Below, piece by piece: positions 3,131-58,562 of a stretch of 64,000 nucleotides of DNA (position 1 is its first letter; every line of letters starts with the position of its first letter). The notes under the pieces are model-generated. The model did not search any database and was not told the DNA's origin. It worked only from the letters and a program-made list of their open reading frames with translations. Source of the stretch: Fulvivirga marina (lineage in GTDB: Bacteria; Bacteroidota; Bacteroidia; Cytophagales; Cyclobacteriaceae); contig NZ_JAEUGD010000066.1 of the NCBI RefSeq assembly GCF_016775155.1, positions 718,833 through 782,832 on the forward strand, read 5' to 3'. The translations under genes and the position numbers were made by a program.

Positions 3131-6100
3131 TTAATTCAGGTTTTGAACTAAAACATCCTCTACCTTATAATTATTAGACACAAACGACGGTTTTCCTGTA
3201 TCCAGCTTCAGAATTTTGTCGGCAACGCTAAAGTAATGGTCATCATGGGTTATTGCGATTACAATTTTGTTGTTCCTTTTCATTTCCGGGATCAACTGTT
3301 TATAAAAGAAATTTCTATACTCAGGGTCTTGATCTGCTGCCCATTCATCAAAGAGGTAGATTGGATGATCTTCAAGGTAGCACTGTAAAAGCCCTAGTCT
3401 TTTTCGCTGTCCGGCAGAAAGTTTAGTTGTACTAAAATGTCCATTCTCAATGGTCACCTTATCTGACAAGCCCAACAACCTCAGGTACCGATCTATTTCA
3501 TCTTTTTTATCAGTTAGATCCACATTATATATTTTCTCAAACAAATGCATAGGGCTGAATACCGCAGAATAATACTCCCCTATATTTTTGATCTCCTTTC
3601 CGTCTACTAATATTCGCCCGGAATTTCCTATATACAAACCTGTCAAGAGCTTTGCAAAGGTTGTTTTCCCACTTCCATTTCCACCAATTATAAACAGAAC
3701 TTCTCCTTTCTTAACAGTTAAGTCGATCGGACCGACCCTGAATGGCTTAGAATCAGCCGCCACCTGATACTCAAATGACAACGACTCGATTTTCAACTCT
3801 TCTACGAAAGCAGTACGATCTGTAAGTTGAGAAGCTTGCCAGTCATGATTTGCAGGAATTTCAAGAAGAAATTTTTGAATTCTTGTCCAGGCGATCTTAA
3901 GCTGCACAATTGAAGGTGCAGCACTTAGCAGTTCGTTGATAGGCCCAATTAAGTAAAGCAGGATAATCACAAAATTGGTGATCACATAATTTTCAATTCC
4001 AGGCATTAGGTTAGGTAAGACTATTGCAACAACACCCAACACCAGTATAAGCGACGACTCTCCTATCAGAAAAGCATTAATGAAATTAATCTGGGCCGTG
4101 TATATTTTAGTTTTAAAATCTCCAATTGTTTTCTCAATATCGGCGTTATACCCTTTCTTTTTCCCATAGTGCAGAGACAGTTCTTTAAAACCCTCAACCA
4201 GTCCGGTGATCTGCCACATGAACTCATCTCGTGTATCTCTAGCTATCTCCAGGTGCCCTTGAGCTCTCCTGCTTACAAAGTAATAAAATGTGGTAATTGA
4301 AACAATCAATGTTAGCGTTAGCATAGTAGCCCAAAAGGCAACCGTAGCCATGTAAAAAAATGCCCCTCCTATGGTTATGGTATTTCTGATTATAGTCACT
4401 ATCATGCCTGTGGAATTACCGACTACCGAGACATCGTCGTTTAATGTAGCATAAACTCTCCCTTTTTTTAGCTTTTCAAAACTCTGATATGAGGTCGAAA
4501 ATATCTTCGAGATCATTTTCAGCCTGATTTCAAAGATCAGGTTCTGCGTTACCTTTACAATACGTGTCTGTACGTGTTTTCTACCAAAGACATAAATGCT
4601 CATGGCTATGAGGAAATAGAATATGAGATATTCCAAATCCATGACATGACGGAGAGAAGAGGTTATAATAAATATGACCACCATGTTGGAGATACCCGTG
4701 ATAATACTAAAAAGTACTATTTTAGGTAATTCTCTTTTTACTTCATTTGGCTCTGGAAAAAGCTGCGCAATAAAGAACACCAGATAACTGGATATCATGG
4801 ATGAAATAAGCAAGGTTACCATGGTACTGAAGCTAAAAGGCATCCAAACATTTATTGTATCCCAATTAAGATTCCCCAGCGCTTTGGGAAGCAGGTAGAT
4901 GGCAATCAGCAAAGGGATGCAAAAGCCTACAGAAGCCATACTGGTTAATACCAGTCTCATATCAGGAACTTTAAATGTCCTTCTACCCTTACTTATGTCT
5001 ATTGTCATTTTCCCAAAAAACACCAAAAGGATGAGCAGATAAACGCATAAAATAATTGATACAACTGAAAAGGCTTTATCGTTACCATCTCCTTCTGCCA
5101 GTACCCTATCTTCATCTGGTTCTTCTCCTTTGAGTATGTGTAATGCCTGATAGGCAATCTCACTCATCAATTCATTGCTTGAATTACTCAGTATGGCTAC
5201 ACCAATGCCCTCTTCCGGCAATAATGATATATGACTGCTATAATTCGGATTTTGCCCATGATGAAATACCCTCTTATCCCCTCTTAGTGATACTTCCCAT
5301 CCCATAGCATAGTATGAGAGATGTACAGGGGCGACCCTGTCATCCGCTATGTGAGATTCAGCAACAAGCCTGGACAATACATTTGGCTGCAGATCCAATT
5401 GAATTTTCAGCCACCTCGCCATATCATCAGCATTAGATATGACATATCCTGCAGCATTATTGCCTCGATAAACAGGAGCATTATAAGCTTTAGGACGGAA
5501 AAATGAACTTTTGTATCCAACTGTCATTGCTGACGAATCGTTAGGTGCCCCTATACTGGTATGTTGTAGACCTAGCGGATCAATAACCTCTTTTTGCAAA
5601 AAGTCTTCAAAAGTATGTCCTGTAATAGTTTCTATAACCAATGCCAGTACATCGTAGTTGATGGTAGCATACTCAAATTCCTCTCCTGGCTCAAATCTCA
5701 ATTCCTGGTCTTTAAGAGCCTCTACGGTTCGTAGCAATGCATTTTCATCGTTAGCCTCCGGTATATCGGCTATTGTCTCCCAAGGGATACCACTTGTATG
5801 ATGAAGCAAATCCCTTATGGTCACGCCAACAGAGCTATCTTCATGATAAAATTGAAGCCATGGCAGATAATCGTCTACCTTATCATCTAATTTAAGTTCT
5901 CCTTGATCAACTAACTTTAAAACTCCAAGAGAGGTGAAAGCCTTGCTTAACGACCCAAGCTGAAAAAGACTCTGACTATCTACTTTTTTACCAGTCTGAA
6001 GGTCAGCATATCCAAATGACTCAACAAAGGTATCTCCTTTGTTAACCACTATCATGACCATTCCTGGTATATGACCTTTCTCACTTTGCTCCTCCGCCAT

Positions 6101-6202
6101 TACTCTTAACCGGCCCGTGATATCTTGAGCATCAACGGCTAAAGTCATAAACTGGCTTAAAAATATAACCAGACAGATAAATAATTTAAAACAATTTTTC
6201 AC
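3131..6202 (-). CDS. Serine beta-lactamase-like peptidase fused to cyclic-peptide-type ABC exporter
   Basis: This 1023-residue protein has a signal peptide (residues 1-26, ending VDAQD) and then a class C beta-lactamase/CubicO-type domain (about 28-345). That domain has S84-x-x-K87 (GSLSKAF), Tyr178 (FEYATINY) and a late HHG motif near 317. Three hydrophobic helices follow at about 377-480. A full ABC half-transporter comes next, with a membrane domain at about 490-760 and a nucleotide-binding domain at about 780-1020: Walker A GGNGSGKTT near 840, signature LSAGQRKR near 928, Walker B IYLFDEWAA near 946 and H-loop ITHDDH near 981. The transporter half resembles the SyrD/PvdE cyclic peptide exporters. 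The hydrolase should face the periplasm. ClbP, XcnG and ZmaM are relatives that cut an N-acyl-D-Asn prodrug leader during export, and ZmaM also carries an ABC part. The start is 10 bp after the NRPS stop. Confidence 0.88.
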   Translation of the reverse strand: MKNCFKLFICLVIFLSQFMTLAVDAQDITGRLRVMAEEQSEKGHIPGMVMIVVNKGDTFVESFGYADLQTGKKVDSQSLFQLGSLSKAFTSLGVLKLVDQGELKLDDKVDDYLPWLQFYHEDSSVGVTIRDLLHHTSGIPWETIADIPEANDENALLRTVEALKDQELRFEPGEEFEYATINYDVLALVIETITGHTFEDFLQKEVIDPLGLQHTSIGAPNDSSAMTVGYKSSFFRPKAYNAPVYRGNNAAGYVISNADDMARWLKIQLDLQPNVLSRLVAESHIADDRVAPVHLSYYAMGWEVSLRGDKRVFHHGQNPNYSSHISLLPEEGIGVAILSNSSNELMSEIAYQALHILKGEEPDEDRVLAEGDGNDKAFSVVSIILCVYLLILLVFFGKMTIDISKGRRTFKVPDMRLVLTSMASVGFCIPLLIAIYLLPKALGNLNWDTINVWMPFSFSTMVTLLISSMISSYLVFFIAQLFPEPNEVKRELPKIVLFSIITGISNMVVIFIITSSLRHVMDLEYLIFYFLIAMSIYVFGRKHVQTRIVKVTQNLIFEIRLKMISKIFSTSYQSFEKLKKGRVYATLNDDVSVVGNSTGMIVTIIRNTITIGGAFFYMATVAFWATMLTLTLIVSITTFYYFVSRRAQGHLEIARDTRDEFMWQITGLVEGFKELSLHYGKKKGYNADIEKTIGDFKTKIYTAQINFINAFLIGESSLILVLGVVAIVLPNLMPGIENYVITNFVIILLYLIGPINELLSAAPSIVQLKIAWTRIQKFLLEIPANHDWQASQLTDRTAFVEELKIESLSFEYQVAADSKPFRVGPIDLTVKKGEVLFIIGGNGSGKTTFAKLLTGLYIGNSGRILVDGKEIKNIGEYYSAVFSPMHLFEKIYNVDLTDKKDEIDRYLRLLGLSDKVTIENGHFSTTKLSAGQRKRLGLLQCYLEDHPIYLFDEWAADQDPEYRNFFYKQLIPEMKRNNKIVIAITHDDHYFSVADKILKLDTGKPSFVSNNYKVEDVLVQNLN

Positions 6203-6212
6203 TTCTATTTTA

Positions 6213-9200
6213 TTAAAGGGTTATATCAAGCTCTTCTCTAATCCTTGCAGCACCAGCTGTATTAAGCAAGGTCCAGTGGCTTGTTTCCAAAGTATGCTCC
6301 ACTACTTTCCCTGTAGTGAAGCCTTTCCAATCAAACTCCGACTCATTATCCTTTTGCCAGAAAGTCATCTGCTTTGCTTTAAAGTGCGTGATTTGGAAAT
6401 TCGGTTTAGCATTAATCTCCGGATAGTATTCGCAAAAAAGATTTGCCCTGTATACTGTAATGAAACCTTTCAATTGATTAACCGAAACTTCAATTCCGCA
6501 ATCCAGAACACTTGAATGTATTTTATCAAACTTACGATGCGGATCAAGACCTACTAAATCCTCAACCTTCAGGCTAATGGTCTCTCCGTACATAAGGCCA
6601 AATACTTCTGCAATACCATGTAACAGTTCATCTTCGCTTTTGAATGGGTTTTGTTGCTTTACATAAGGCGCCATAGCATCAAATAAAATTAGATGCTCCA
6701 CTTTATAGCCCATTTGCACCAACCTTAGCGCCATTTCATAAGCAATGCTACCTCCAAAGGAGTAACCACCAATTATAAATGATCCGTCGTGAGGTTGTTT
6801 CAGCAGCTCTTCCAAATACTGAGCAGCCATTTCCTCTACTGTTTCCAGAGCTTTGTCTAAACCTTCAAACCCCTGAGCCTGAAACGCATAAACCGGCTGA
6901 TCTTTTCCCAGTTTACTAGCCAATGGATAAAAGACCATGGGACTACCTCCCCCACCGTGAACGAGGTATATAGGCCTTTTCGTACCGGACTTATTTATAG
7001 GTATAAGTGTAGAAGCTTGTTCCTGAGACTGCCCCTCCATCACCATTTCTATCTTAAGAGCTAACGAACGTATATCGGGACATTCAAATAAAGCGGCAAT
7101 AGGCATCTGTACATAGAGTACTTTCTTCAATCTCGCCATTAATCTTACAGCCAACAACGAGTGTCCTCCCAGTTGGAAAAAGTTATCATCAATGCTAACC
7201 TTTTCACTATCAATACTGAGTAACTCCGCCCAAACATCCACCAAAAGCTGTTGTAGCTTATTTTGCGGCGGAACATAATCATTTTTATCTGTTAGCTCAG
7301 GTTTTGGCAATGCCTTCCTATCCACTTTTCCGTTAATAGTAAGAGGAATATGATCCAGTGTAATGAAATGGGCGGGCAACATGTATACTGGCAATTGCTT
7401 TTTTAACTGAAGCAGTATTTCACTTTCATCATAATTTTGAGAAGGTACGATATAGGCAACCAGGGATGGGTCGCCCACCACTTTTTCGTATACATCAATT
7501 ACACATTGCGATATACCGTGCATATCCTGTAGAGCGACTTCTATCTCCCCTAATTCAATTCTAAAGCCTCGTATCTTCACCTGGGTATCTGCCCTGCCGA
7601 GATATTCCAATGAACCATCGGCCAACCACCTAACGATGTCACCTGTTTTATATAGCCTGTCACCATCTACAAAGGGATTATCAACAAACTTCTCTCGCGT
7701 AAGCTCAGGTTGGTTTAAATATCCGAGAGCAACACCTACTCCACCAAGATACAATTCCCCGGAAATGCCAACTGGCATTAGATCCATATTGCCTCCCATC
7801 ACATAGGCATATACCCCTGGTAATGGAAAGCCAATAACATTACGTTTAAAGGTCTCCACATTTTGCAGACATACAGCATCTATTGTGGTTTCGGTTGGCC
7901 CGTAATGGTTATTGATCTGTGCATTTGGCAAAACACTTTTAATCTGCCTGATGATCGTTGAATTCAAGGATTCTCCTCCAATACAGATCTGCCTCAATTG
8001 AGATAAATCCTGTTCATCTGTAAAATACTCAATAAGTCCTGCCAACTGACTGGGAGTACCTTGAAGTACTGTCACTCGCTCCCGACCAATCAGTGATGCC
8101 AGCAGAGCAAAATCCTGCACCTGCTCTTCACTGGGTATAACTAAAGTTCCCCCGGCATAAAGGGTCAAAAATATCTCTAGTACAGAAACATCAAAAACAA
8201 AATTTGTAGACAGACATGCCGCATCATTTCTGGAAAACGAAAGCAATTTCATCTCCTCTTCAAGTCTGGAAGCCAGACTGGCATGGGTTATCATTACCCC
8301 CTTAGGGTTACCCGTTGTTCCTGAAGTATAGATGACATACGCTGTATCTTCAGGGGTAACACCTGTGAGATTTCCCCATACAGTTTCCTTTTCGGACAGG
8401 TTTAACTCTCCAATGATAATTTGATCGGCTTCATCAACTGCTTCACGATATTGGTCAGTCAAAAAGATTTTTGCTTGTGTATCTTTCAGAATATACTGAA
8501 CGCGCTCATCAGGATACTTCTGATCTACAGGCACATAAACACCCCCTACCTTCAAAATACCTAAGATGCCTATGATCATATCAACAGAACGCTGCATTGA
8601 AATGACCACCATATCACCTGAAACAATACCTCTGTTTCTTAGCTCTGATGCCAGGTTTGAGGAGGCATTATCTACTGACTTATAGTTAATTCCTTCTGAT
8701 TCAAAGCGACACGCTATACTTTCAGGATAATTTTTGACTTGCTGATCAAACATTTCCAGGAAAGTATGGCCCCGAGTCTCCCTGATCGGATGAGGATTAA
8801 ATTCATTGAGGATTCTGTCTTGTTCTTTGCGTGGTAGCAGGGATAGCTCACCCACAGGTTTTTCTGGTGTATTGCTAATTGCCTCCAATAAAGTTTCTAG
8901 CTGCTCCAGCATTCTCAAAGCTGTCCCTTCTTCAAAAAGATCCGAGCAATATTCTAGTGTCAACTGTAAACCTTCCGGACTCTCTGCTGCAATCAGGCTT
9001 AAATCAAAGAGCGAATTTTCTCGTGACACTCCAATGCTCTGAATGGCACTGCTTTTCTTTACAGACTGATCTGTAGCAGAATTGATCAAGCTAAACATCA
9101 CCTGAAATACCGGATGCCTGCTGGTATCTCTATGCTTTTCTACCCTCTCTACAATTTTTTCAAAAGGAATATCCTGATGATCATATGCCAGCAGTGTAGT

Positions 9201-12200
9201 ATCCCTAACTTTAGTCAAGAGATCAAGAAAACCAACCTGACCATTTACTCCGGTTCTAAAAGCTAATGTATTGACAAAAAAGCCGATCAAAGGCTCAATC
9301 TCTTCATCCTGCCTATTGGCAACAGGACTTCCTATACATATATCACCCTGCCTGGTATATCTATAAAGAAATACTTTAAAAGCAGCCAGTAAAGTCATAA
9401 AAAGTGTGGCATTATGCTGTTTGCCAATATTCGAAATTTGATCACTTAATGTGATTGACAGCCGTTTTGATACAAACCCACCCTTTGTACTTTGCATCGC
9501 CGGCCTCGTAAAGTCTGTAGGCAGGTTAAGAGGGGATACCCCTTTTAAAGCCTGCTCCCAAAAACCTAATTTCGATTCCAACACAGCACCTTTTAGGCTT
9601 TCCCGTTGCTTAATAGCATAGTCAGCGTATTGCATAGGTAGGGGCTTCAAATCTGGCGCTTTATTTTCCTTCCATGATTGATAGAACTGCACTAGCTCTC
9701 TCATAAAAATGGGTTGAGACCAACCGTCGAAAGAAATATGGTGAACAACAAGTATCAGAACATGCCCTCCTGTATCCAGGCTGATCAATTTAGCTCTAAG
9801 CATAGGATCACGAGCGAGATCAAACGGTTTTCTCACTTCTTCATGGATTGCCTCATTGAGTACCTCTTCGTTAGCTTCCCCATAACTTACCCCCCATGTT
9901 TGTGGCTTGAGAATTTGTTGGTATGGTTCGCCCTGATACTCTCTAAAAACTGTTCTTAGCACTTCGTGCCGGTTGACCAGTTCGCTATAGGCATATGCAA
10001 TTCCCTCCGCAGAAGTACCCTCTTCCAGCTTCATTACTATGGGTATATGATACTGCGTGCTTCCCTCGAGCTTATCAATAAACCAAAGTCGCTCCTGAGA
10101 AAACGATAATGGTATCTTTTCCGGTCTTTTGGCCTGAACTGCAACTACTTCCCTCTCAACTTTTTCAAGAGAATTAATATGACATTCCTGCTCTTTTATA
10201 GTAGGCTTCAAGAAGATATCTTTCACAGCTATTGTAACCTTCAACTGTGTTTTTATCCTTGAAATTAACCTGATAGCCAAGAGAGAATGTCCTCCGTGTT
10301 CAAAGAAGTTAGCATTTATACTGATGGACTGTTCATCTATTTTCAACAATTCGGACCAGATTTTTGCTAATACCTCCTGGACGTCATTTTCCGCAGCCTG
10401 AAAGGTGTTTTCAGATATCCTTTGAGGTTCAGGTAATTTTTTCTTATCAATTTTGCCACTTGGCAGCAAGGGAAGTTCTTCGATCCGTACATAGTAATCA
10501 GGAACCATATATGATGGTAGGTGTGCCTGCAGGTATTCACGGATATCACTGGTAAGTAATTCCTCTTCACTTACATAGTAACCGACCAGATACTGATTTT
10601 CACCCTCTCCTCTAAGTTGCACTATTCCTTCAGCAACACCTTCGAACTCCTTTAACCAGTGCGTGATCTCTCCCAACTCAATACGATAGCCTCGTAGCTT
10701 AACCTGCTCATCTATACGACCTAAATATTCCAGGTTCCCATCAGGAAGCCAACGAACCAAATCTCCAGTCTTGTATAGCCTGCTTTCTGATTCTCCATCG
10801 TATGGATTATCTACAAACTTCTCTGAGGTCAATTCGGGGTTGTTGTAGTATCCTCGTGCTAAGGCTATTCCTCCAAGACATAGCTCTCCGGGTACTCCTA
10901 AACCTGCCAGTTGATTGGCTGTGTCTAAAACATAGGCTTTTACACCTCTCAAGGGTTTTCCTATCGGAACACTTCGAAGGCCTTCATACGAAGATGTTGA
11001 ATAACCTGTAGCATAGATCGTAGCCTCCGTTGGACCATACAGGTTCTCTAAACGTGTAGATAAACCCAGTCTGTTAAAATAATCAACTGTATTACGGGCC
11101 AGTGGCTCCCCGGCTGAAATGATGTAACGCAACGACTCAAGGCCTGTACTTCCTTTCCTTCCTACTTCTTCCAAAAACAGCCCCAACATGGAGGGTACGA
11201 AGTTTACATGACTCACCCGATATCGAACAAGGGCGTCTTTTATCACTATAGGATCTGACTCGTCTCCCTGAGGAAGTATAGCCAACGATCCTCCGGATAC
11301 AAACCAGCCAAACAGTTCAGAGCAGCTCACATCAAAGACCACATTGGTCTTGAGAAGATAACTATCTCCGGCCTCCAGAGGGTATTGATCCTGCATGGTT
11401 TCTATGAGGTTGGCTAGAGACCTATGCTCAACCATCACTCCTTTAGGGGTACCCGTTGACCCTGAAGTGTAAATGATGTAAGCCAAATCTTCTATACCTG
11501 ACTCATGAGCCGGTTTTTCATCCTCGGATGTTGAAGATTCAGACATTAAATGCTGGTAATCAAGTACCGTAACTGCCTCAAAACCGTCATAGAAACTGCC
11601 AGTGGTTTTATCAGCTACAAGGTATTGAGCCCCGGTATGATCAAGGATGTACGCCCGGCGTGAATCCGGCTGGGTCCAATCTATGGGAAGATAGGCACAT
11701 CCTGCTTTGAGTATCCCGAAAATGGTTATTATCAAATCTGATGAACGCTCCATGCTCACCCCTACTATGTCACCAGGACGGACACCTCTGGCATGAAGCT
11801 GATGACTCAAGGCATTGGATCGTACCTGCAAATCCTTATATGTGATCTCTTCATCTCTTTCATATAAGGCCACATGATCCGGTGTAAGTAAGGCCTGACG
11901 ATCAAACTTTTCCATTACCGTTTCATGGATCTCTGGTAAGGGCTGTGCATTATAATGAATGGATTGTAATGACTCCTGCTCTTCAGAATTCATCAGGCTC
12001 AGTGAGCTCAACTTCGCTTCTGGATCAGCTACAATTTGCTCCAAAAGAGTGATGTATTGACCTAAAAACTGTTCCATTGTCTCCTTCAAAAACAGATCGG
12101 TACAGTAGGTTACCCCTACTTTCAAACCTTGGTCAGGACTTTCGACTATGGAAAGGGTAATATCAAATTTTGATTCAGTTACAAAGGAAACTTCATGGTC

Positions 12201-15200
12201 AGGTGTAACTGAATTTTGTTTATTGATCTGATGCAGGAACATTACCTGAAAAACAGGATTCCTACTCATGTCACGCGACTTCTCGACACGCTCCACTATT
12301 TTTTCAAATGGCACATCCTGATGCTCGTAGGCTGACAGGGTTGTGCTCTTGATGTGTTGAAGAAGCTCTACAAATGTAACTTCATCATCTATTTTGTTTC
12401 TAAGTACAAGTGTATTGACAAAAAAACCGATTAGTGGCTCTATTTCTTTATGTCCTCTGTTAGCAACGGGTGTACCAACAACAATGTCATCCTGTCCGGA
12501 ATAGCGGCTAAGCAATAGCTGAAAAGCACTTAACATAGTCATAAACAATGTCGCTCCGTTCTTTTCGGACAAAGATTTAATTTCAGACAAACGCTCTTTG
12601 GGCAAGCTCCTCAATATTGACCTTCCTGCTGTACTAATGGCTGCTGGCCTTGGCAAGTCTGTAGGGAAAGCAAGTGTCTGAAGCCCTTTAAGCTTCTCCT
12701 CCCAATATTGCAATTTAGCAGACAACAACTGGCCCTTAAAGTAAGATTGTTGCCAAACTGCATAATCCGCATACTGAATTGTTAGATTGCTTAATTCAGG
12801 TTCTTTTTTCTGCACCCATGACTGGTAGAATTCCTGCATCTCATTTTCAAATATCGGGTGCGACCAACCATCTGAAGCAATATGATGAGTTACGACGAGC
12901 AGCAAGAAACCCTTGTCAGTTTCCAGCAATTCCCCTCTTATAGGAATTTCCATGGAAAGGTCGAAAGGCCTCTTTTTAAAACCTTCCATATAAGTGGATA
13001 ACTCCTCTCCTGGTAAATTAACTTTATCCAGCTTCCAGTCTTGCTCCGGTAATACATACTGGAACGGCACACCATCCTGCTCTTTATAGATAGTGCGTAA
13101 TATCTCATGGCGATTAATCACCGAGCGATATGCATGAGCCACACCATCAGAATCCGCTTTACTCCCCAAAGGGAAAGTTGATGAAATATGATATTGTGTG
13201 CTACCTTCCAGCTTATCAATGAACCATAGCCTTTCTTGGGCAAAGGAAAGAGGCAATACCCCATCCCGTTCTGCAGGTTCTATACCTACGGTCTCCTTCT
13301 TCTCCAAAAGATCAATATGCGCGGCAAGGTCTCGTATATTAGGGTTTAAAAAGACATCCTTTACTGTAAGTTCAATAGACAGGTTATGGACAATTTGAGA
13401 CACCAAACGTGTCGCAAGTAATGAATGCCCCCCCATTACAAAGAAGTCATCATCAATACCTATATTGCATTCTTCGACTTTCAAAAGCTCCGCCCAAATA
13501 GGTACCAAGGCTTTTTCCGTTATCGAAACTGGTGCTGCATATGCCTCTGCTCCGGATATTTTGGGCACAGGCAGTTTCGATTTATCAATTTTTCCATTCT
13601 CAGTTAATGGGAAACGATCAATCTCAACAATTGCAGCCGGCATCATATACCTTGGCAACCTCTCCATGAGATAATCACGAGTCTCATTATCGGTGTAGAT
13701 ATCCGTAGGTACTACATATGCTGCAATTCTTTTATCCCCTGGAATATCTTCTCTAACCATTACCATGCATTGATCAACCCCTGGAGCCATCTGAAGTATG
13801 GCCTGAACCTCTCCAAGCTCAACCCGGAAACCTCTTATACTTATCTGATCGTCCTGTCTTCCTGCAAAGAATATATCCCCGTTTTCATCCCAGGAGGCCC
13901 GGTCTCCAGTTTTATATATTTTACTTCCACCCCATACCAGTGGATTATCCAGAAATGCTTTTTCAGTAAGTTCTTCATTATTTAAATAGCCAGAGGCCAG
14001 TTGCTCTCCTCCCAGGTAAAGATCTCCTTCAACTCCTCCAGGAACAACATTCATGTGCTGATCAAGAATAATAGCATAGGTGTTGTTAATCGGTCTACCA
14101 ATTGCAGGGGCCTGCTTTTCATCACTTTGAGTGAGTAGATGTGCGGTTGACACCACCGTATTTTCAGTGGGGCCATAATTATTATGCAGTGCATAAGCCA
14201 GCCCTGATACATCAAGAGCAGGTAAAGCATCTCCGCCCGTTAGCAGGTGCTTCAGGCTCATAGGCCTTTCTTTTGTATATTTCACAAAGTCTGGCACCAG
14301 AGCTGTAGGAAGAAAGCAGTGTGTAATTTGTTTAGACTCAAATACATTAACCAAGTCAATCACTGATAGCGTTGTATTATCATCTATAATATGTAATGTG
14401 CCTCCTGTAAGCAGGTATGGCCAAATCTCCCAGGCAGATGCATCAAAACCAACACCCGCCACCACGGTTGAGTGGCTGTGTTCATTATTTCCGAATCTTT
14501 CCTTATGCCAATGAATAAGATTTAACAGGGACTTTTCCCTGATCATCACACCTTTTGGCCTGCCTGTAGAACCTGAAGTATAAATTACATATGCCAATTG
14601 ATCAGGTTTCCGTAATGCCACGGAATAGCTGCATGGTGCAGGTCTCAAATCTGTCTGAAAAAGCTCTATATCAAACGACTCAAAAAACTTTGTGGTACTA
14701 TCGTTAACAACGGCATAGTTGGCTCCCAGATCATTAAGTACCCATTCTATACGACTGGATGGGTGGTTAGGGTCAAGGGGAATATATGTTCCTCCGGCTT
14801 TGGTAACTGCCAATATACTTACAATAAGAGTTAATGACCTGCTCTGACAAATGACCACATAATCATTGCTTTTTACTCCTGCCTCACTCAGTGATTTGGC
14901 CAGGTAGTCTGAAGCTACATCCACCTCACGGTATGTCATCGATTCCTTTTCGGAGACAATCGCCACTTTATCAGGATGCTTTTTTACCTGTTTCGCAAAC
15001 ATGTCCAAAAGCCCTGCTCCGCCTAACTCTTGAGTTGGCCCTTTCGACCACTTCATTAACTTATGTTCTTCGGTCTCCCCTACCATCCTGAGCCTGTGAA
15101 TAGGCGCTTCAGGGCTCTCCAATGCAGAGATAATAAGTTGTGCAAAATGTGCCAGCAGGCTCTTCATGGTTTTCTCACTAAAAAGATCCGTGCAGTAATT

Positions 15201-16616
15201 AGCACTTAACCTCAGACCTTTTTCATCATTAACTACCGACATCGTTAGATCGAACTTGCTGCTATCTGACGACTGCGAGATAACCTGTATAGGGCCAGAT
15301 TCCTGAACCTGATCACGGCTAAGGCTGCCTTTATTGGCTTCCTGAAAAACAAACAATATTTGAACAAGCGGATTTCTACTAATATCACGCGAAACACCAA
15401 GCCGCTCTATGATCTTCTCAAATGGTAATTCCTGATGCTCATATGCCTCCAATAAGGTAGCCTTGACATGGGCAAGCAACTGTAAGAAGCTCATACCTTC
15501 ACCCAGATTACACCTTATAGCCAGGGTATTAACAAAAAATCCAATGAGTGACGCTAGTTCTTCCTTAGACCGATTGGCTACAGGTGTTCCTATGCAGATG
15601 TCTTTTTTTCCTGTATACCTGCTTAACAATACGCTAAATGCAGCAAAAAGCACCATAAACTGAGTCACTCCTTCTTTAGCAGAAAACTGCCTTAATGCGT
15701 CTCGGTATTTATCTGGCATAGGGAGGGTTACTGTTCTACCTTTTGTGCTTTGAATAGGTGGTCGAGGATAATCAGTTTTCAAGCTGAGAGGAGATAACCC
15801 CTTTAATCGCTCCTCCCAAAAAAGCATGGTATTCTCTAATACATCGCCTTGCATAAAGGTCCTCTGCCACATGGCATAGTCCGCATACTGAACAGACAAT
15901 GGTGGAAGTCCTGTTGTATCTCCACTAATCCATTTCCCATAATATGTTTTTAACTCTTGAATAAATATCGGTTGCGACCATCCATCAAAAGCGATGTGGT
16001 GCACAACCAGCACAAGCACCTTATGGTCAGATGGTAACTTGATCAACTCTGCTCTAAGCATGCAGTCATTGGAAAGATCAAAGGGCTTCTTACTAACATT
16101 ATAAATATGCTTTTGAAGATCCTCTTCGGATGACTCGCTAACTGTACAAGGCCAACTGCCCTGCGGTAAGATTTCCTGGTATGGCCCCTGCCCGTCCTCC
16201 TTATAAATTGTGCGAAGGGTTTCATGCCTATTGATTAGCTCATTAACAGCATATTTCACGCCTTCCTCCTCAATCCCAGGGGCTAATTTTAAAATAGTAG
16301 GGATATGATAATGCGAACTTCCCTCCAAACGGTCAATAAACCACAGCCTCTCCTGAGAAAATGACAGAGGTATCCTTAATACCTCCTGCCTGTCAAAAGG
16401 GGTGATGGGATTATCCTGAGGCTTAACAATATCAGCAGATTGCTTTTTTAAAAATTCTTTGATCTCTTCTTTATGTGATCTTAACTGAGCTAAAAAAGAT
16501 TCATCTGCTACCGTATCATTTTTTAGTGTGTATTTTAGTTTATCCCCCTCAAGAAAGAGTGCAATATTCTTCTCATTGGCTTCGATAAGAAGCCCTACAA
16601 TTTCTTTCCTACTCAT
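6213..16616 (-). CDS. Three-module NRPS with terminal thioesterase (C-A-PCP x3-TE)
   Basis: The final assembly-line protein, 3467 residues. Order: TubC-like docking domain (1-55); C1 (HHIAFDGWS near 204); A1 (A3 motif near 675); PCP1 (GGHSLLAT near 1062); C2 (HHIASDGWS near 1242); A2 (near 1714); PCP2 (near 2105); C3 (HHISFDGWS near 2287); A3 (near 2760); PCP3 (near 3147); thioesterase (3200-3467, GGYSFGGS near 3280). All C domains keep HHxxxDG and all PCPs keep the phosphopantetheine Ser. By eye the A1 pocket reads D-A-W-F-L-G-N-V-V, the classical leucine code. A2 (D-V-S-N-I-A-L-I-Y) is nearly identical to the A domain of the NRPS at 19998-23387. A3 (D-V-L-G-C-G-H-I-D) is unassigned. There is no epimerization domain. 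The thioesterase should hydrolyse or macrocyclise the finished chain. The gene begins 8 bp after the preceding stop. Confidence 0.96.
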   Translation of the reverse strand: MSRKEIVGLLIEANEKNIALFLEGDKLKYTLKNDTVADESFLAQLRSHKEEIKEFLKKQSADIVKPQDNPITPFDRQEVLRIPLSFSQERLWFIDRLEGSSHYHIPTILKLAPGIEEEGVKYAVNELINRHETLRTIYKEDGQGPYQEILPQGSWPCTVSESSEEDLQKHIYNVSKKPFDLSNDCMLRAELIKLPSDHKVLVLVVHHIAFDGWSQPIFIQELKTYYGKWISGDTTGLPPLSVQYADYAMWQRTFMQGDVLENTMLFWEERLKGLSPLSLKTDYPRPPIQSTKGRTVTLPMPDKYRDALRQFSAKEGVTQFMVLFAAFSVLLSRYTGKKDICIGTPVANRSKEELASLIGFFVNTLAIRCNLGEGMSFLQLLAHVKATLLEAYEHQELPFEKIIERLGVSRDISRNPLVQILFVFQEANKGSLSRDQVQESGPIQVISQSSDSSKFDLTMSVVNDEKGLRLSANYCTDLFSEKTMKSLLAHFAQLIISALESPEAPIHRLRMVGETEEHKLMKWSKGPTQELGGAGLLDMFAKQVKKHPDKVAIVSEKESMTYREVDVASDYLAKSLSEAGVKSNDYVVICQSRSLTLIVSILAVTKAGGTYIPLDPNHPSSRIEWVLNDLGANYAVVNDSTTKFFESFDIELFQTDLRPAPCSYSVALRKPDQLAYVIYTSGSTGRPKGVMIREKSLLNLIHWHKERFGNNEHSHSTVVAGVGFDASAWEIWPYLLTGGTLHIIDDNTTLSVIDLVNVFESKQITHCFLPTALVPDFVKYTKERPMSLKHLLTGGDALPALDVSGLAYALHNNYGPTENTVVSTAHLLTQSDEKQAPAIGRPINNTYAIILDQHMNVVPGGVEGDLYLGGEQLASGYLNNEELTEKAFLDNPLVWGGSKIYKTGDRASWDENGDIFFAGRQDDQISIRGFRVELGEVQAILQMAPGVDQCMVMVREDIPGDKRIAAYVVPTDIYTDNETRDYLMERLPRYMMPAAIVEIDRFPLTENGKIDKSKLPVPKISGAEAYAAPVSITEKALVPIWAELLKVEECNIGIDDDFFVMGGHSLLATRLVSQIVHNLSIELTVKDVFLNPNIRDLAAHIDLLEKKETVGIEPAERDGVLPLSFAQERLWFIDKLEGSTQYHISSTFPLGSKADSDGVAHAYRSVINRHEILRTIYKEQDGVPFQYVLPEQDWKLDKVNLPGEELSTYMEGFKKRPFDLSMEIPIRGELLETDKGFLLLVVTHHIASDGWSHPIFENEMQEFYQSWVQKKEPELSNLTIQYADYAVWQQSYFKGQLLSAKLQYWEEKLKGLQTLAFPTDLPRPAAISTAGRSILRSLPKERLSEIKSLSEKNGATLFMTMLSAFQLLLSRYSGQDDIVVGTPVANRGHKEIEPLIGFFVNTLVLRNKIDDEVTFVELLQHIKSTTLSAYEHQDVPFEKIVERVEKSRDMSRNPVFQVMFLHQINKQNSVTPDHEVSFVTESKFDITLSIVESPDQGLKVGVTYCTDLFLKETMEQFLGQYITLLEQIVADPEAKLSSLSLMNSEEQESLQSIHYNAQPLPEIHETVMEKFDRQALLTPDHVALYERDEEITYKDLQVRSNALSHQLHARGVRPGDIVGVSMERSSDLIITIFGILKAGCAYLPIDWTQPDSRRAYILDHTGAQYLVADKTTGSFYDGFEAVTVLDYQHLMSESSTSEDEKPAHESGIEDLAYIIYTSGSTGTPKGVMVEHRSLANLIETMQDQYPLEAGDSYLLKTNVVFDVSCSELFGWFVSGGSLAILPQGDESDPIVIKDALVRYRVSHVNFVPSMLGLFLEEVGRKGSTGLESLRYIISAGEPLARNTVDYFNRLGLSTRLENLYGPTEATIYATGYSTSSYEGLRSVPIGKPLRGVKAYVLDTANQLAGLGVPGELCLGGIALARGYYNNPELTSEKFVDNPYDGESESRLYKTGDLVRWLPDGNLEYLGRIDEQVKLRGYRIELGEITHWLKEFEGVAEGIVQLRGEGENQYLVGYYVSEEELLTSDIREYLQAHLPSYMVPDYYVRIEELPLLPSGKIDKKKLPEPQRISENTFQAAENDVQEVLAKIWSELLKIDEQSISINANFFEHGGHSLLAIRLISRIKTQLKVTIAVKDIFLKPTIKEQECHINSLEKVEREVVAVQAKRPEKIPLSFSQERLWFIDKLEGSTQYHIPIVMKLEEGTSAEGIAYAYSELVNRHEVLRTVFREYQGEPYQQILKPQTWGVSYGEANEEVLNEAIHEEVRKPFDLARDPMLRAKLISLDTGGHVLILVVHHISFDGWSQPIFMRELVQFYQSWKENKAPDLKPLPMQYADYAIKQRESLKGAVLESKLGFWEQALKGVSPLNLPTDFTRPAMQSTKGGFVSKRLSITLSDQISNIGKQHNATLFMTLLAAFKVFLYRYTRQGDICIGSPVANRQDEEIEPLIGFFVNTLAFRTGVNGQVGFLDLLTKVRDTTLLAYDHQDIPFEKIVERVEKHRDTSRHPVFQVMFSLINSATDQSVKKSSAIQSIGVSRENSLFDLSLIAAESPEGLQLTLEYCSDLFEEGTALRMLEQLETLLEAISNTPEKPVGELSLLPRKEQDRILNEFNPHPIRETRGHTFLEMFDQQVKNYPESIACRFESEGINYKSVDNASSNLASELRNRGIVSGDMVVISMQRSVDMIIGILGILKVGGVYVPVDQKYPDERVQYILKDTQAKIFLTDQYREAVDEADQIIIGELNLSEKETVWGNLTGVTPEDTAYVIYTSGTTGNPKGVMITHASLASRLEEEMKLLSFSRNDAACLSTNFVFDVSVLEIFLTLYAGGTLVIPSEEQVQDFALLASLIGRERVTVLQGTPSQLAGLIEYFTDEQDLSQLRQICIGGESLNSTIIRQIKSVLPNAQINNHYGPTETTIDAVCLQNVETFKRNVIGFPLPGVYAYVMGGNMDLMPVGISGELYLGGVGVALGYLNQPELTREKFVDNPFVDGDRLYKTGDIVRWLADGSLEYLGRADTQVKIRGFRIELGEIEVALQDMHGISQCVIDVYEKVVGDPSLVAYIVPSQNYDESEILLQLKKQLPVYMLPAHFITLDHIPLTINGKVDRKALPKPELTDKNDYVPPQNKLQQLLVDVWAELLSIDSEKVSIDDNFFQLGGHSLLAVRLMARLKKVLYVQMPIAALFECPDIRSLALKIEMVMEGQSQEQASTLIPINKSGTKRPIYLVHGGGGSPMVFYPLASKLGKDQPVYAFQAQGFEGLDKALETVEEMAAQYLEELLKQPHDGSFIIGGYSFGGSIAYEMALRLVQMGYKVEHLILFDAMAPYVKQQNPFKSEDELLHGIAEVFGLMYGETISLKVEDLVGLDPHRKFDKIHSSVLDCGIEVSVNQLKGFITVYRANLFCEYYPEINAKPNFQITHFKAKQMTFWQKDNESEFDWKGFTTGKVVEHTLETSHWTLLNTAGAARIREELDITL
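10432..12080. repeat. Duplicated A-domain block, copy 1
   Basis: This block aligns without gaps to 20311-21959 at a constant offset of 9879 bases. It covers the end of a C domain and the whole second A domain of the three-module NRPS. The two encoded stretches differ at about 20 of roughly 545 residues by eye, and long DNA runs are identical. Similarity drops at both ends, where the flanking C and PCP domains diverge. This indicates recent duplication or gene conversion of the A domain alone. Confidence 0.9.
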
Positions 16617-16624
16617 TTAACCTA

Positions 16625-19600
16625 TTATAAGTCGTATACTTTTTCTTCTGATTTGTGATCTTGTGATGATGTTGAAATACTTATCAACTTGCCCAGCTCC
16701 ACTATGGATGAAAAGTTAAAAAGTTGTTGTAACGATAACTGTATACCAAATGCTTTTTCAATTTGATAGGCCAGTCTAATAACCAAAAGTGAGTGACCTC
16801 CAAGCTCGAAAAAGGTCTTCTTCACATCAATATTTTCCTTGGGCATTCCGAGTAAACCATGCCAAATCTCCACCAGCTTTTCTTCTGTTTCATTAGCAGG
16901 CCTGTTCAAGGCAACTACCAAATCGAGTGTTGCTGTAGTAAGTTCCTTTTTGTTGATTTTCCCATTGCTATCCAAAGGAAGTTTTTCCAACGGCACAATG
17001 AATGCAGGTACCATATAGTCCGGCAGGCTTTTCCTTAGCGATATGAGCAGTTGATCCTCATTATAATGAGATGAAGGGACTACATAGGCAACCAGATTCT
17101 TTTGTGACGCTACTTCCTGCAAAATAACCTTACAGGCAATCACCTGTTCTGTTCCCATGATATGCGACTCAATTTCGCCTGGCTCTATGCGGTAACCTCT
17201 AAGTTTAATCTGATCATCTTTTCTTCCCATAAAGAGCAGATCTCCCTGTGAAGTCCATTTCACTAAATCTCCTGTTTTGTACCAGGTTTCTTCCTTATTT
17301 CCTGTTACAGGGTTGCTAACGAAGCTTTCTCTTGTTTTATCTTGTTGCAAATAACCCTTGGCCACCGGGATACCACCTATATACAATTCTCCTGAAACAC
17401 CTACTGGTACAAGTTGCCCTCCTTCACTAACCACCATGACCCTGGCGTTAGTTATCGGCTTTCCGATTGGAATGATTTTATTATTTGTTTCTTTAACTTC
17501 ATGAAATACACAACCAATACTTGCCTCCGTCGGCCCATAAAGGTTAGTTATTCTCACATCAGGGTAGATCTTCTTAAATTGGTTAACTGCTTCTACCTGT
17601 ATCTCTTCCCCTCCAATTACGATTTCCTTCAAGCTTTTCAGATCATCGCTTACTCCTTGTTCCATCATTTCATGCACTATCTCACTAAATAATGCGGGCA
17701 CAAAATCAGTCATGGTAATATTAAACCCTGAAACGATTTCTTTGAAATATTTCGCCGAAAGCAATTGATCTTCTGAAGGAATCACTGTTTGCCCCTCGTT
17801 CATTAATGGCCAGAAAATCTGCCACACTGAACTATCAAAGATATGCTGTGTGGTACGCAGCACTGATCTAGCAGCGTCCTTACCAAAATACTCATTCATC
17901 CAGTAAAGCCTGTTCATTACTCCTCCGTGTGTAACAACCACTCCTTTAGGCCTGCCTGTGGTTCCTGAAGTATGAAACACATACATCGCGTCCTCTTGTT
18001 TTGCCGGAAAAGATATATCTTTTTCACTATCATTCAACTGGTCTATATCAACCAAAAGCAGTTGATCGGATACTAACTCACTTTCCCTTAGCCCCTTGGT
18101 ATTAGTCAGTATAACCTTAGCCTTTAAGGATTCTATGATTTCATCCAACCTGGTTGTGGGCCAATGAATACTCAATGGAGCAAAAGCAGCTCCACATTTC
18201 AATACTGCCAAGGCTGAAACCACATAATCCAGACCTCGAGACATAACCACAGGAATATAATCATTCGGCTCTATCCCGCGTTCCAATAGCTGTCTGGCCA
18301 GTGTATTAGCTTTGCTATTCAACTCACCATAACTCAACTGTTGATCTTTATAACATGCCGCTATTTTCTCAGGAGACTGCCTGGAGGTAGCTTGAACTAT
18401 TTCATGTACATTTTCAAAACCATATTCACTCCTCTCATACCTATGTAAAACATTTTGCTCTTCCTGAGTAAGCATACTGATTTGATCTATACACAGTGTA
18501 GGTTCCTTTACCACATTTTTGAGAATGTTTTTATAATGATTCATCATTCTCTTCATGGTCTCCTCCTTAAAGAGGTCATCGCAATAGGTGATATACACCC
18601 TCAATCCATGGGCCGTGCTGGTAATTGTAAAAGTCAGGTCAAATTTGGACGTATGCTGTCCGACAGACTCCCAAGCCAACTGGATGTCTGACAGCCCTTT
18701 TGATTCGCCTTCGGGAGTGTTTTGAAAAACAAAGAGTGTTTGAATAAGTGTACTCCTGCTAATATCCCTTTTGCTCTCAACACGTTCTATAATTTTCTCT
18801 ATAGGTACATCCTGACGTTGAAATGCCTCCAGCGATGTATTCCTAACCTGTTTCAATAGTTCCTGAAAGGTATCAGTTCCTTTAAATTTACTTCTGAGTG
18901 CAACAGTATTAAGGAAAAAACCAATTAGGGACTCCGTTTCCTTGTGCAGCCTGTTGGCAATGGGGCTACCAATTACAATATCGTATTGTCCGGTATATTT
19001 ATGCAGCAACACACTTAGCGCTGTAAGTAAAAACATGTACTGTGTGGTTTCACTTCTGGCACAAAGGTCATTGATGGATTGGCTTATTTCTACAGGAACC
19101 ATGCCACTATGCAAAGCTCCGCTTGAACTTTTTACGGTTGGTCGTGGGAAATCAGTGGGTAAATTAAGGGGTTCGTAGCCGGTTAGTTTATTTTCCCAAT
19201 AGCTTAATTTACTATCAAGGGTATTGTTTTCAAGTTGTTTCCTTTGCCAGCAGGCATAGTCTGCATACTGAAGTTCCAAATCCTTTAAATTGGATTGTCG
19301 TTTTTCAACTCTTGACTGATAAAGTTCCATCAATTCTTCATAAAAAATGGGAATGGACCAACCATCAGATGAAATGTGGTGCATTACAATGATGAAGTAA
19401 TGACTTTCTTCCGTTACCGTGATCAGGGTAGCTCGCAAGGAGATATCTTCCGACAGGTCAAATGGCTTCTTAGTTTCCTCTGCTGCCAGATTCATAATTT
19501 CCTCATGGGACTTATCTGGTAAACTCAGTCGGGTTATCGACCATTCTGGCATTTGGTCAAGGATCACCTGGTATGGATTCCCTTCCTCCTCTTTGTACAC

Positions 19601-19996
19601 GGTCCTTAAAATTTCATGCCTGTTGATCACTGAAGTAAAAGCATATTGAAGTGCATCAATATCCAGCTTCCCTTGAATCCTACGTAAAGTTGGCATATGA
19701 TAGGGTGTAGATCCTTCAAACCGATCAATGAACCAGATTCTTTCCTGAGAACAGGATAATGGCAACTTATCGAAACCATTACGGCTCTCAAGGTTAATCT
19801 TTTCGCTTGGTGCCGACAATTCTGACAAACTCAGGAAATCAATAATAGCCTGCTTGTTTTCCCTTATTTCGGCAATTAGTTCAGGGCTAATGGTGTTCTG
19901 TTTAGGCTTTTTTATTTGCAGCTTTCCAGCCTCAATGTATGCATATGAGCCACTGTTTTTCAGCTCATTAAGAATATTTAGTACTTTATCGTCCAT
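16625..19996 (-). CDS. Single-module NRPS (C-A-PCP) with TubC-like docking domain
   Basis: A 1123-residue elongation module. Order: N-terminal TubC-like docking domain (1-50); C domain (HHISSDGWS near 205); A domain (A3 motif HTSGTTGRPKG near 672, A5 NLYGPTEAS, A8 IKLRGYRIEPGEI); PCP (LGGHSLLVI near 1064). The A pocket reads by eye D-S-W-D-I-G-L-I-G, the same as in the PKS-NRPS at 23440-30930, so both probably load the same amino acid. I do not recognise the code. The protein ends in the short acidic tail EEKVYDL, which probably binds the docking domain of the next NRPS. Its start lies 1 bp after the stop of the preceding gene, which suggests translational coupling. Confidence 0.95.
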   Translation of the reverse strand: MDDKVLNILNELKNSGSYAYIEAGKLQIKKPKQNTISPELIAEIRENKQAIIDFLSLSELSAPSEKINLESRNGFDKLPLSCSQERIWFIDRFEGSTPYHMPTLRRIQGKLDIDALQYAFTSVINRHEILRTVYKEEEGNPYQVILDQMPEWSITRLSLPDKSHEEIMNLAAEETKKPFDLSEDISLRATLITVTEESHYFIIVMHHISSDGWSIPIFYEELMELYQSRVEKRQSNLKDLELQYADYACWQRKQLENNTLDSKLSYWENKLTGYEPLNLPTDFPRPTVKSSSGALHSGMVPVEISQSINDLCARSETTQYMFLLTALSVLLHKYTGQYDIVIGSPIANRLHKETESLIGFFLNTVALRSKFKGTDTFQELLKQVRNTSLEAFQRQDVPIEKIIERVESKRDISRSTLIQTLFVFQNTPEGESKGLSDIQLAWESVGQHTSKFDLTFTITSTAHGLRVYITYCDDLFKEETMKRMMNHYKNILKNVVKEPTLCIDQISMLTQEEQNVLHRYERSEYGFENVHEIVQATSRQSPEKIAACYKDQQLSYGELNSKANTLARQLLERGIEPNDYIPVVMSRGLDYVVSALAVLKCGAAFAPLSIHWPTTRLDEIIESLKAKVILTNTKGLRESELVSDQLLLVDIDQLNDSEKDISFPAKQEDAMYVFHTSGTTGRPKGVVVTHGGVMNRLYWMNEYFGKDAARSVLRTTQHIFDSSVWQIFWPLMNEGQTVIPSEDQLLSAKYFKEIVSGFNITMTDFVPALFSEIVHEMMEQGVSDDLKSLKEIVIGGEEIQVEAVNQFKKIYPDVRITNLYGPTEASIGCVFHEVKETNNKIIPIGKPITNARVMVVSEGGQLVPVGVSGELYIGGIPVAKGYLQQDKTRESFVSNPVTGNKEETWYKTGDLVKWTSQGDLLFMGRKDDQIKLRGYRIEPGEIESHIMGTEQVIACKVILQEVASQKNLVAYVVPSSHYNEDQLLISLRKSLPDYMVPAFIVPLEKLPLDSNGKINKKELTTATLDLVVALNRPANETEEKLVEIWHGLLGMPKENIDVKKTFFELGGHSLLVIRLAYQIEKAFGIQLSLQQLFNFSSIVELGKLISISTSSQDHKSEEKVYDL

Positions 19997-19997
19997 A

Positions 19998-23387: not shown

Positions 23388-23439
23388 TTCTTTATCAGGA
23401 CTTATATTGATATAACTAAATATAACTTACCGTTTAACG

Positions 23440-30930: not shown

Positions 30931-30950
30931 ACTATAGTTTAGTGCTTAGG

Positions 30951-37511: not shown

Positions 37512-37542
37512 TCCCTGTTTATAAAATTTTTAAATACTAATA

Positions 37543-44505: not shown

Positions 44506-44551
44506 AAATGTAATTTAAGCGTCTTTGTAGCTTTGTATAATAACCTTTGTT

Positions 44552-49909: not shown

Positions 49910-49953
49910 GATAGATATATTGCTGTTTCCGCTACGGTGAGCGAATTGTTATT

Positions 49954-51540: not shown

Positions 51541-51582
51541 ATCTTGGTTTGGAATATTTAATTTGTTGATTACGAAACTTAT

Positions 51583-57288: not shown

Positions 57289-57312
57289 AAAATATTTTTT
57301 ATCGGTTTGACT

Positions 57313-58536: not shown

Positions 58537-58562
58537 TCTATTAAATATTCCGCTTTAAAAAG

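What the first reader, a model, noticed from the sequence alone, without database searches (positions are those of the whole stretch)
3131..6202. Prodrug-type peptidase fused to the product exporter
Signal peptide, serine beta-lactamase-like domain, three helices and a complete ABC exporter form one chain. ClbP, XcnG and ZmaM show that such domains can remove an N-acyl-D-Asn cap from a nonribosomal product at export, as self-protection. If this holds here, the first module, beyond the right edge, should be a lipo-initiating C domain with an Asn-loading A domain and an epimerase, and the mature product would lack that cap.
Basis: partly seen in the sequence, partly recalled or inferred. Interest (0 to 1): 0.7.

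Follow-up and report, generated by a model that had tools for sequence, protein, structure and literature searches.

The report
Prodrug-cleaving peptidase fused to exporter
A marine-type bacterium carries one protein that most likely pumps a still-masked antibiotic-like compound out of the cell and cuts off the mask on the way; this protein type is already known from other bacteria, but here the gene that should make the mask is missing beside it.

Summary
In detail: window 3131-6202 (minus) encodes 1023 aa with signal peptide, S12 peptidase, three helices and an ABC half-exporter. The architecture is known (ZmaM/EdeA/PamJ type). ClbP is the best solved match over the full length; over the catalytic domain alone S. 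aureus Flp scores slightly higher, and a tree of that domain does not separate Flp. The case rests on the D-Asn pocket (Thr180, Asn318; Flp has Asn and Leu), the helices with both tryptophans, the fused exporter and the NRPS setting. ClbP Glu92 is Gln.

The predicted cap module is partly confirmed. The first synthetase gene, beyond the right edge, has an Asn-code A domain but no E domain and an acceptor-type C domain. The orthologous Fulvivirga sediminis cluster has the missing protein: ligase-T-C-A(Asn)-T-E. In the window's genome it is absent at the syntenic place; three paralogous caps (35-40% identical) lie elsewhere. Near related peptidases, 27 of 27 A-T-E modules carry the Asn code against 2 of 88 other A domains.

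Verdict: a Bacteroidota member of a known protein kind, with a missing or trans-supplied cap module. Nothing was assayed.

The parts
3131..6202 (-). Prodrug peptidase-ABC half-exporter fusion, 1023 aa
5168..6097 (-). S12 peptidase domain (residues 36-345), predicted periplasmic; catalytic Ser84/Lys87/Tyr178, pocket Gln81/Thr180/Asn248/Asn318
4751..5083 (-). Three-helix membrane region (residues 374-484) with Trp447 and Trp453, equivalent to ClbP W460/W466
3191..4726 (-). Cyclic-peptide-export ABC half-transporter (residues 493-1004), TIGR01194
2311..3027 (-). Type II thioesterase, 238 aa, downstream in the same direction
   Evidence: same order in F. sediminis
6213..16616 (-). Terminal synthetase: three C-A-T modules and a thioesterase domain; ends 10 bases before the fusion gene
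16625..63980 (-). Rest of the NRPS/PKS assembly line inside the window (with a CmlA-like hydroxylase at 49954-51540 and a stand-alone AT at 57313-58536); the last gene runs over the right edge

Best explanation
The protein is a ZmaM-type prodrug-activating transporter of an NRPS/PKS cluster in a Fulvivirga-like Bacteroidota. The product is built on an N-acyl-D-asparagine cap that keeps it inactive in the cytoplasm. The ABC part, as a dimer, moves the capped product across the inner membrane. The S12 domain, held at the outer face by an odd number (three) of helices, cuts behind D-Asn by a Ser84/Lys87/Tyr178 mechanism and releases the active product. Shown: domains, residues, and co-occurrence of such peptidases with Asn-code A-T-E cap modules. 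Inferred: the cap of this product, the transport direction and the self-protection role. In this genome the cluster's own cap protein is missing, so the cap must come in trans from a paralogous cap protein, or the pathway starts at the second module.
For: Best full-length solved matches are ClbP chains (7mdc E 1e-53, residues 27-460, i.e. through the helices). Residue test taken from passages of PMC9889268: S95, K98, Y186, S/T188, H/N257, N331, W460 and W466 all met. Flp, the closest non-prodrug solved protein, has Asn at 188 and Leu at 331. 13 S12 proteins from the same loci show no hydrophobic stretch and no W-x5-W after the S12 domain, against W-x5-W in 63 of 73 prodrug-type proteins of 480 aa or more. 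27 of 27 A-T-E modules near these peptidases carry the Asn code against 2 of 88 other A domains. The sister cluster has the cap protein. The first synthetase here keeps the acceptor head, identical over its first 29 residues to the sister that has the cap. Constraint on the fusion: pN 0.10, pS saturated.
Against: The cap module is not in this cluster. Over the catalytic domain alone Flp scores higher than ClbP (178.8 against 174.5 bits), and in the tree Flp joins the prodrug side (prodrug plus Flp against 19 others 0.977; Flp with ClbP 0.428), so the tree cannot tell prodrug peptidases from all other S12 proteins. Glu92, which orients the D-Asn-reading Asn in ClbP, is Gln here, as in 11 of 75 sequences including this one. 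N331 (12 of 13) and E92 (11 of 13) are also present in the same-locus S12 controls. No structure model could be made. Nothing was assayed.
Confidence: 0.82

Rival explanations
1. The cap pathway of this cluster is decayed: the cap gene was lost and the fusion now only exports, or is on its way out.
For: The cap gene of the sister species is absent between FkbH and the UpxY gene, with no remnant found in the 1.6 kb searched; the own-genome caps are only 35-40% identical.
Against: The large frames of the cluster are open; fusion and first synthetase have pN about 0.10 with saturated pS against F. sediminis; catalytic and pocket residues are kept. The pairwise test cannot date the loss.
Confidence: 0.2
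2. The first encoded module (C-A(Asn)-[amidotransferase-like insert]-T) is itself the cap module, without epimerase, so the cap is an L-Asn or an Asn-derived residue modified by the insert, and Gln81 reflects a changed specificity.
For: It is the first synthetase gene in this genome's cluster, its A domain has the Asn code and falls in a clade with cap A domains, and position 92 differs.
Against: Its C domain sits in the acceptor clade (0.996); in F. sediminis the same protein coexists with a true cap protein. With more sequences its A domain groups first with other insert-bearing, non-cap A domains (0.895). Gln92 occurs with ordinary Asn-E caps in L054, L064, L099 and L103, so it does not track the cap.
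Confidence: 0.1
3. An ordinary S12 hydrolase (CubicO/esterase/carboxypeptidase-like) fused to an exporter, unrelated to prodrug removal.
For: S12 is a very large family; this genome holds 17 PF00144 matches; Flp is as close as ClbP over the catalytic domain and groups on the prodrug side of the tree.
Against: Thr at position 188 and Asn at 331 (Flp: Asn and Leu), alignment to ClbP through the helices with both tryptophans, and the NRPS setting.
Confidence: 0.05

Closest known systems
ZmaM (zwittermicin), with EdeA and PamJ
   Same: ClbP-like peptidase fused to an ABC half-transporter domain in one chain of about 1,100 aa, beside NRPS genes (PMC9889268 passages). The cluster here also has FkbH, 3-hydroxyacyl-CoA dehydrogenase, acyl-CoA dehydrogenases and a stand-alone Ser-code A domain, which resemble zwittermicin extender-unit genes (recalled).
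   Different: Bacteroidota host; Gln for Glu92 of ClbP; the cap protein is absent from this cluster, and in the Bacteroidota versions seen it starts with a fused ligase-like A domain and carrier. ZmaM's own sequence was not compared here.
ClbP (colibactin)
   Same: Catalytic triad, D-Asn pocket and interface tryptophans; alignable over 434 residues.
   Different: ClbP has no fused transporter and has Glu92; the paper sees a dimer interface that seems unique to proteobacterial ClbP.
PvdE-type cyclic peptide exporters (TIGR01194)
   Same: C-terminal half, 342.1 bits. That PvdE belongs here is recalled.
   Different: The family model covers the exporter only; the same genome has an unfused TIGR01194 protein of 558 aa at C63:433065-434690.

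Membership tests
ClbP/ZmaM-type prodrug-activating S12 peptidase (the protein) | Catalytic Ser-x-x-Lys and Tyr (S95, K98, Y186) | tested here: met
   Ser84, Lys87, Tyr178; 75 of 75 sequences in the alignment. Shared by ordinary S12 proteins too
ClbP/ZmaM-type prodrug-activating S12 peptidase (the protein) | D-Asn pocket: S/T188, H/N257, N331 | tested here: met
   Thr180, Asn248, Asn318. Flp has Asn, Asp, Leu. N331 alone is also present in 12 of 13 same-locus S12 controls, which have Gly (12) or Asp (1) at 188
ClbP/ZmaM-type prodrug-activating S12 peptidase (the protein) | E92 (highly, not strictly, conserved in the paper; not counted as defining) | tested here: not met
   Gln81; Gln in 11 of 75 sequences. 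The paper reports that ClbP E92Q keeps wild-type-like D-Asn activity and gains D-Asp
ClbP/ZmaM-type prodrug-activating S12 peptidase (the protein) | Three-helix domain with W460 and W466 | tested here: met
   Trp447 and Trp453; hydrophobic stretches in 374-484; absent after the S12 domain in 13 of 13 controls
ClbP/ZmaM-type prodrug-activating S12 peptidase (the protein) | Groups with ClbP and not with other S12 proteins | tested here: inconclusive
   74 prodrug-type tips against 19 S12 proteins 0.981, but Flp joins the prodrug side when added
ClbP/ZmaM-type prodrug-activating S12 peptidase (the protein) | Cleaves N-acyl-D-Asn | not testable with these tools
   needs an assay
Complete N-acyl-D-Asn prodrug system (cap module plus peptidase in one cluster) | Cap module C-A(Asn)-T-E in the cluster | tested here: not met
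   Absent here, so this genome's cluster is not filed as a complete system; present in the F. sediminis ortholog and in paralogous clusters C55, C39 and C64
Cyclic peptide export ABC transporter (TIGR01194) | Score over the curated cut-off | tested here: met
   342.1 bits against 286.2

The most novel reading that the evidence does not exclude
Cap and peptidase behave as exchangeable parts in this genome: the window cluster (elongation modules and peptidase-exporter, no cap) is primed in trans by an N-acyl-D-Asn cap protein encoded elsewhere, for example the C39 cap, which has a peptidase-exporter beside it but no acceptor synthetase on its 32-kb contig. The first module then adds an Asn-derived residue altered on the line by an amidotransferase-like domain inserted in its A domain, so that decapping exposes an unusual first residue such as an amidine.
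Probability: 0.3. Interest if true: 0.65.

Novelty: new member of a known kind. Interest (0 to 1): 0.42.

Why it matters
It extends the fused prodrug peptidase-exporter to Bacteroidota (27 of 27 Bacteroidota loci found were fused), a phylum that does not occur in the main text of the reference survey. Such clusters flag compounds that probably need masking to spare their maker, and 'Asn-code A-T-E near the peptidase' (27 of 27) gives a simple search handle. The missing cap gene makes trans-supply of a prodrug cap directly testable.

Tried and rejected
Gln for Glu92 co-varying with the lost epimerase or the inserted domain: rejected, since L054, L064, L099 and L103 have Gln together with ordinary Asn-E caps.

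The first gene as a starter module: its C domain was labelled 'Cs' in my scripts only because I had put it in the training set; the tree places it among acceptor domains.

L110, L115 and the second L115 fragment were dropped from the trees as incomplete.

Count of A domains: the window contig was excluded; of 147 A hits in the rest, 115 were used, 15 had no code (score 60 or less) and 17 had more than two gaps; none of the 32 dropped was followed by T-E. In another Aminicenantes contig (L158) an insert-bearing A-T-E module has a non-Asn code; no peptidase is on that contig piece.

Plasmid search: the limit of 5000 records was reached, the ten rows shown matched only the ABC half, no record covered 80% of the query. 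Structure prediction was never accepted.

Literature: in the listings and in the passages opened I saw no statement of these peptidases in Bacteroidota or of the inserted amidotransferase-like domain; most listed papers were not opened and most subscription papers are not held. PMC10734526 does report Flavobacteriaceae clusters with 7-22% of genes similar to zwittermicin A. Seen as passages only: PMC9889268, PMC9889270, PMC9248904, PMC10734526, PMC12565237.

Full report
What is there. Window 3131-6202, minus strand, is one 1023-aa frame beginning with GTG. Pfam gives a beta-lactamase/S12 domain at 36-345 and an ABC ATPase at 825-955; NCBIfam gives 'cyclic peptide export ABC transporter' TIGR01194 at 493-1004, 342.1 bits against a cut-off of 286.2. 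Hydropathy shows an N-terminal hydrophobic stretch, three stretches between 374 and 484, then the exporter's own membrane segments; Walker A, LSAGQ and Walker B are present. With the peptidase outside, three helices bring the chain back to the inside, where a half-transporter should start (inference). The gene starts 10 bases after the end of the terminal synthetase gene and is followed by a type II thioesterase. It is a half-transporter, not a complete exporter.

Kind of peptidase. With the whole protein as query the three best solved matches are ClbP chains (7mdc, 7ul6, 7mde; listed as 'Beta-lactamase', but with the same letters as the chains listed as 'ClbP peptidase' and with 13 of 13 residues numbered in the paper in place), aligned to query residue 459 or 460 and so through the helices. 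Over the catalytic domain alone the best match is Flp, 4gdn (178.8 bits), just ahead of ClbP (174.5 bits). Passages of the ClbP structure paper PMC9889268 give a residue test. On an alignment of 75 sequences (71 public loci plus the four of this genome), S95, K98 and Y186 are kept in 75 of 75, position 188 is Thr in 74 and Ser in 1, 257 is Asn in 74 (1 gap), 331 is Asn in 73 (2 gaps), W460 in 64 (6 Leu, 2 Tyr, 3 gaps) and W466 in 71 (1 Phe, 3 gaps). The window protein meets all of these. It departs at Glu92, which is Gln (11 of 75, itself included); [quoted passage not shown]

Controls. Flp has Asn at 188 and Leu at 331. Among 13 other S12 proteins from the same loci, position 188 is Gly in 12 and Asp in 1, and none has a hydrophobic stretch or W-x5-W after the S12 domain, against W-x5-W in 63 of 73 prodrug-type proteins; but N331 (12 of 13) and E92 (11 of 13) are present in them, so those two alone do not discriminate. 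A FastTree of 93 sequences puts 74 prodrug-type proteins, ClbP included, apart from 19 other S12 proteins, seven of them from this genome, with support 0.981; ClbP's place is unresolved at 0.14. When Flp is added it falls on the prodrug side (0.977), weakly with ClbP (0.428). The tree is therefore against a link with the ordinary S12 proteins of these genomes, but it is not a proof of prodrug function; pocket, helices, exporter and gene setting carry that claim.

How common. The scan of genome contigs returned 71 loci. By my reading of the record titles these are 27 Bacteroidota (all fused), 6 Aminicenantes (5 fused, one cut off; five of the six are from one MAG) and 38 Bacillota (19 fused, 16 of about 500 aa, 3 of other length). 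The search patterns came from Bacteroidota sequences, so the proportions are biased. The fused form is known: the ClbP paper describes ZmaM, EdeA and PamJ homologs of about 1,100 aa with an ABC domain, and reports the family from Firmicutes, Proteobacteria and Actinobacteria; 'Bacteroid' does not occur in its main text.

Is there an Asn cap module. Substrate codes were read at positions anchored on motifs recalled from GrsA, and the meaning of the codes (Asn, Ser, Cys) is recalled. Near the peptidases, 27 of 27 A domains followed by T-E carry the Asn code (in C39, C55 and 25 of the 71 public loci), against 2 of 88 other A domains; 32 further A hits could not be read, none of them followed by T-E. 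The remaining 46 public loci show no such module in the DNA held; flanks were at most 10 kb and often cut by contig ends. My E-domain profile was built from the C55 and C39 caps, so divergent E domains may be missed.

In the window's own cluster. The assembly line runs leftwards from C63:805259. Its first synthetase gene, C63:800985-805259 (1424 aa), is C-A-T with an Asn-code A domain (DLTKIGEVG) and an inserted domain at 913-1228 that matches TIGR03573, N-acetyl sugar amidotransferase, below cut-off (143.6 of 203.2 bits). The genome-wide TIGR01720 search (E domains) shows no match between 718 and 806 kb of C63, and none over cut-off up to 842 kb. Its C domain falls in a 24-member clade (0.996) of C domains that open a synthetase in clusters where a cap protein precedes, for example C55, L064, L072 and L073. 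Its A domain falls in a clade with cap A domains (0.986); with more sequences it groups first with insert-bearing non-cap A domains of Aminicenantes (0.895), and the wider clade mixes cap and insert-bearing A domains (0.947, 0.992). So this module looks like the acceptor of an N-acyl-D-Asn made by another protein.

The missing cap protein. In F. sediminis the fusion is 82.6% identical over 1023 residues and the first module 83.4%. Its contig C8 carries, directly before FkbH, a 2125-aa protein: ligase-like A domain, T, C, A with Asn code, T, E. In the window's genome FkbH (814890-815960) is followed instead by a UpxY-type gene (816238-816771), with no remnant of the cap found in the 1.6 kb searched and no N in the contig stretch. 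The best own-genome matches are paralogous caps in C55, C64 and C39 (40, 37 and 37% over about 1020 residues; 38, 36 and 35% over the whole protein), all with the Asn code. The acceptor head of the first module is identical in both species over its first 29 residues, and the cap tails share a motif of the kind SDF...LD-x-LF, the F. sediminis tail being the least typical, so trans-docking is plausible but unproven. The C64 contig has a cap but no S12-ABC fusion was found on it; the C39 contig has both but no acceptor synthetase on its 32 kb. Loss with decay and unassembled sequence remain possible; pN about 0.10 with saturated pS shows long-term constraint on the fusion and the first module but cannot date a loss.

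Mechanism. Shown: domains, residues, co-occurrence, synteny. Inferred: an N-acyl-D-Asn-capped precursor is handed to the ABC dimer, exported, and cut by Ser84/Lys87/Tyr178 at the outer face of the inner membrane; the cap protects the producer. For ZmaM, passages of PMC9889270 report inhibition of the purified enzyme and, on treating the producer with the inhibitor, a mass consistent with prezwittermicin, so the fused form has been linked to a prodrug experimentally elsewhere.

Verdict. I file the protein, not this genome's cluster, under the known kind, because the cap module was looked for and not found. The unexpected part is that this genome lacks the cap gene of this cluster while its sister species has it.

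Noticed in passing
C63:801564-802544 (beyond the right edge; L033:3564-4544, minus): A PP-loop amidotransferase-like domain (TIGR03573) is inserted between the A core and its C-terminal part. Of 13 such A domains whose code could be read, 11 carry the Asn code (here, F. sediminis, Aminicenantes L157 and L160, and 7 of 8 further same-family genomes; exceptions L158 and G039). It might turn the Asn side chain into an amidine (guess); searches returned no paper.
   Followed up: partly
Same-family genomes G092, G116, G031, G072, G149, G035, G215: Small loci with the same C-A(Asn)-insert-T protein (split into two frames in G031) near a stand-alone A domain, with no fused peptidase in the DNA fetched (6.5 to 40 kb each).
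   Followed up: no
L046, L049, L050, L052, L053, L057, L060, L062, L063, L065, L067; own C19:271-1638 and C55:36285-37769: A second, unfused S12 protein (about 450-660 aa, Gly at position 188) lies near the fusion in 11 of 27 Bacteroidota loci and in two clusters of this genome.
   Followed up: no
C64:201473-207946: A full Asn cap protein (ligase-T-C-A-T-E) in an NRPS cluster on a contig on which no S12-ABC fusion was found.
   Followed up: partly
C63:807859-815960: Stand-alone Ser-code A domain, two acyl-CoA dehydrogenases, 3-hydroxyacyl-CoA dehydrogenase and FkbH: likely amino- and hydroxymalonyl extender units as in zwittermicin (resemblance recalled).
   Followed up: no
window 134-1789, minus: 551-aa protein without Pfam or NCBIfam match, 78% identical and in the same order in F. 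sediminis.
   Followed up: no
window 37543-44505 and C63:793543-794826: Two C domains look like heterocyclisation domains by their motifs (recalled); one precedes an A domain with a Cys-like code, the other a Ser-like code.
   Followed up: no
C63:523020-524348: A C-domain match in another NRPS region is reported with one stop codon inside.
   Followed up: no
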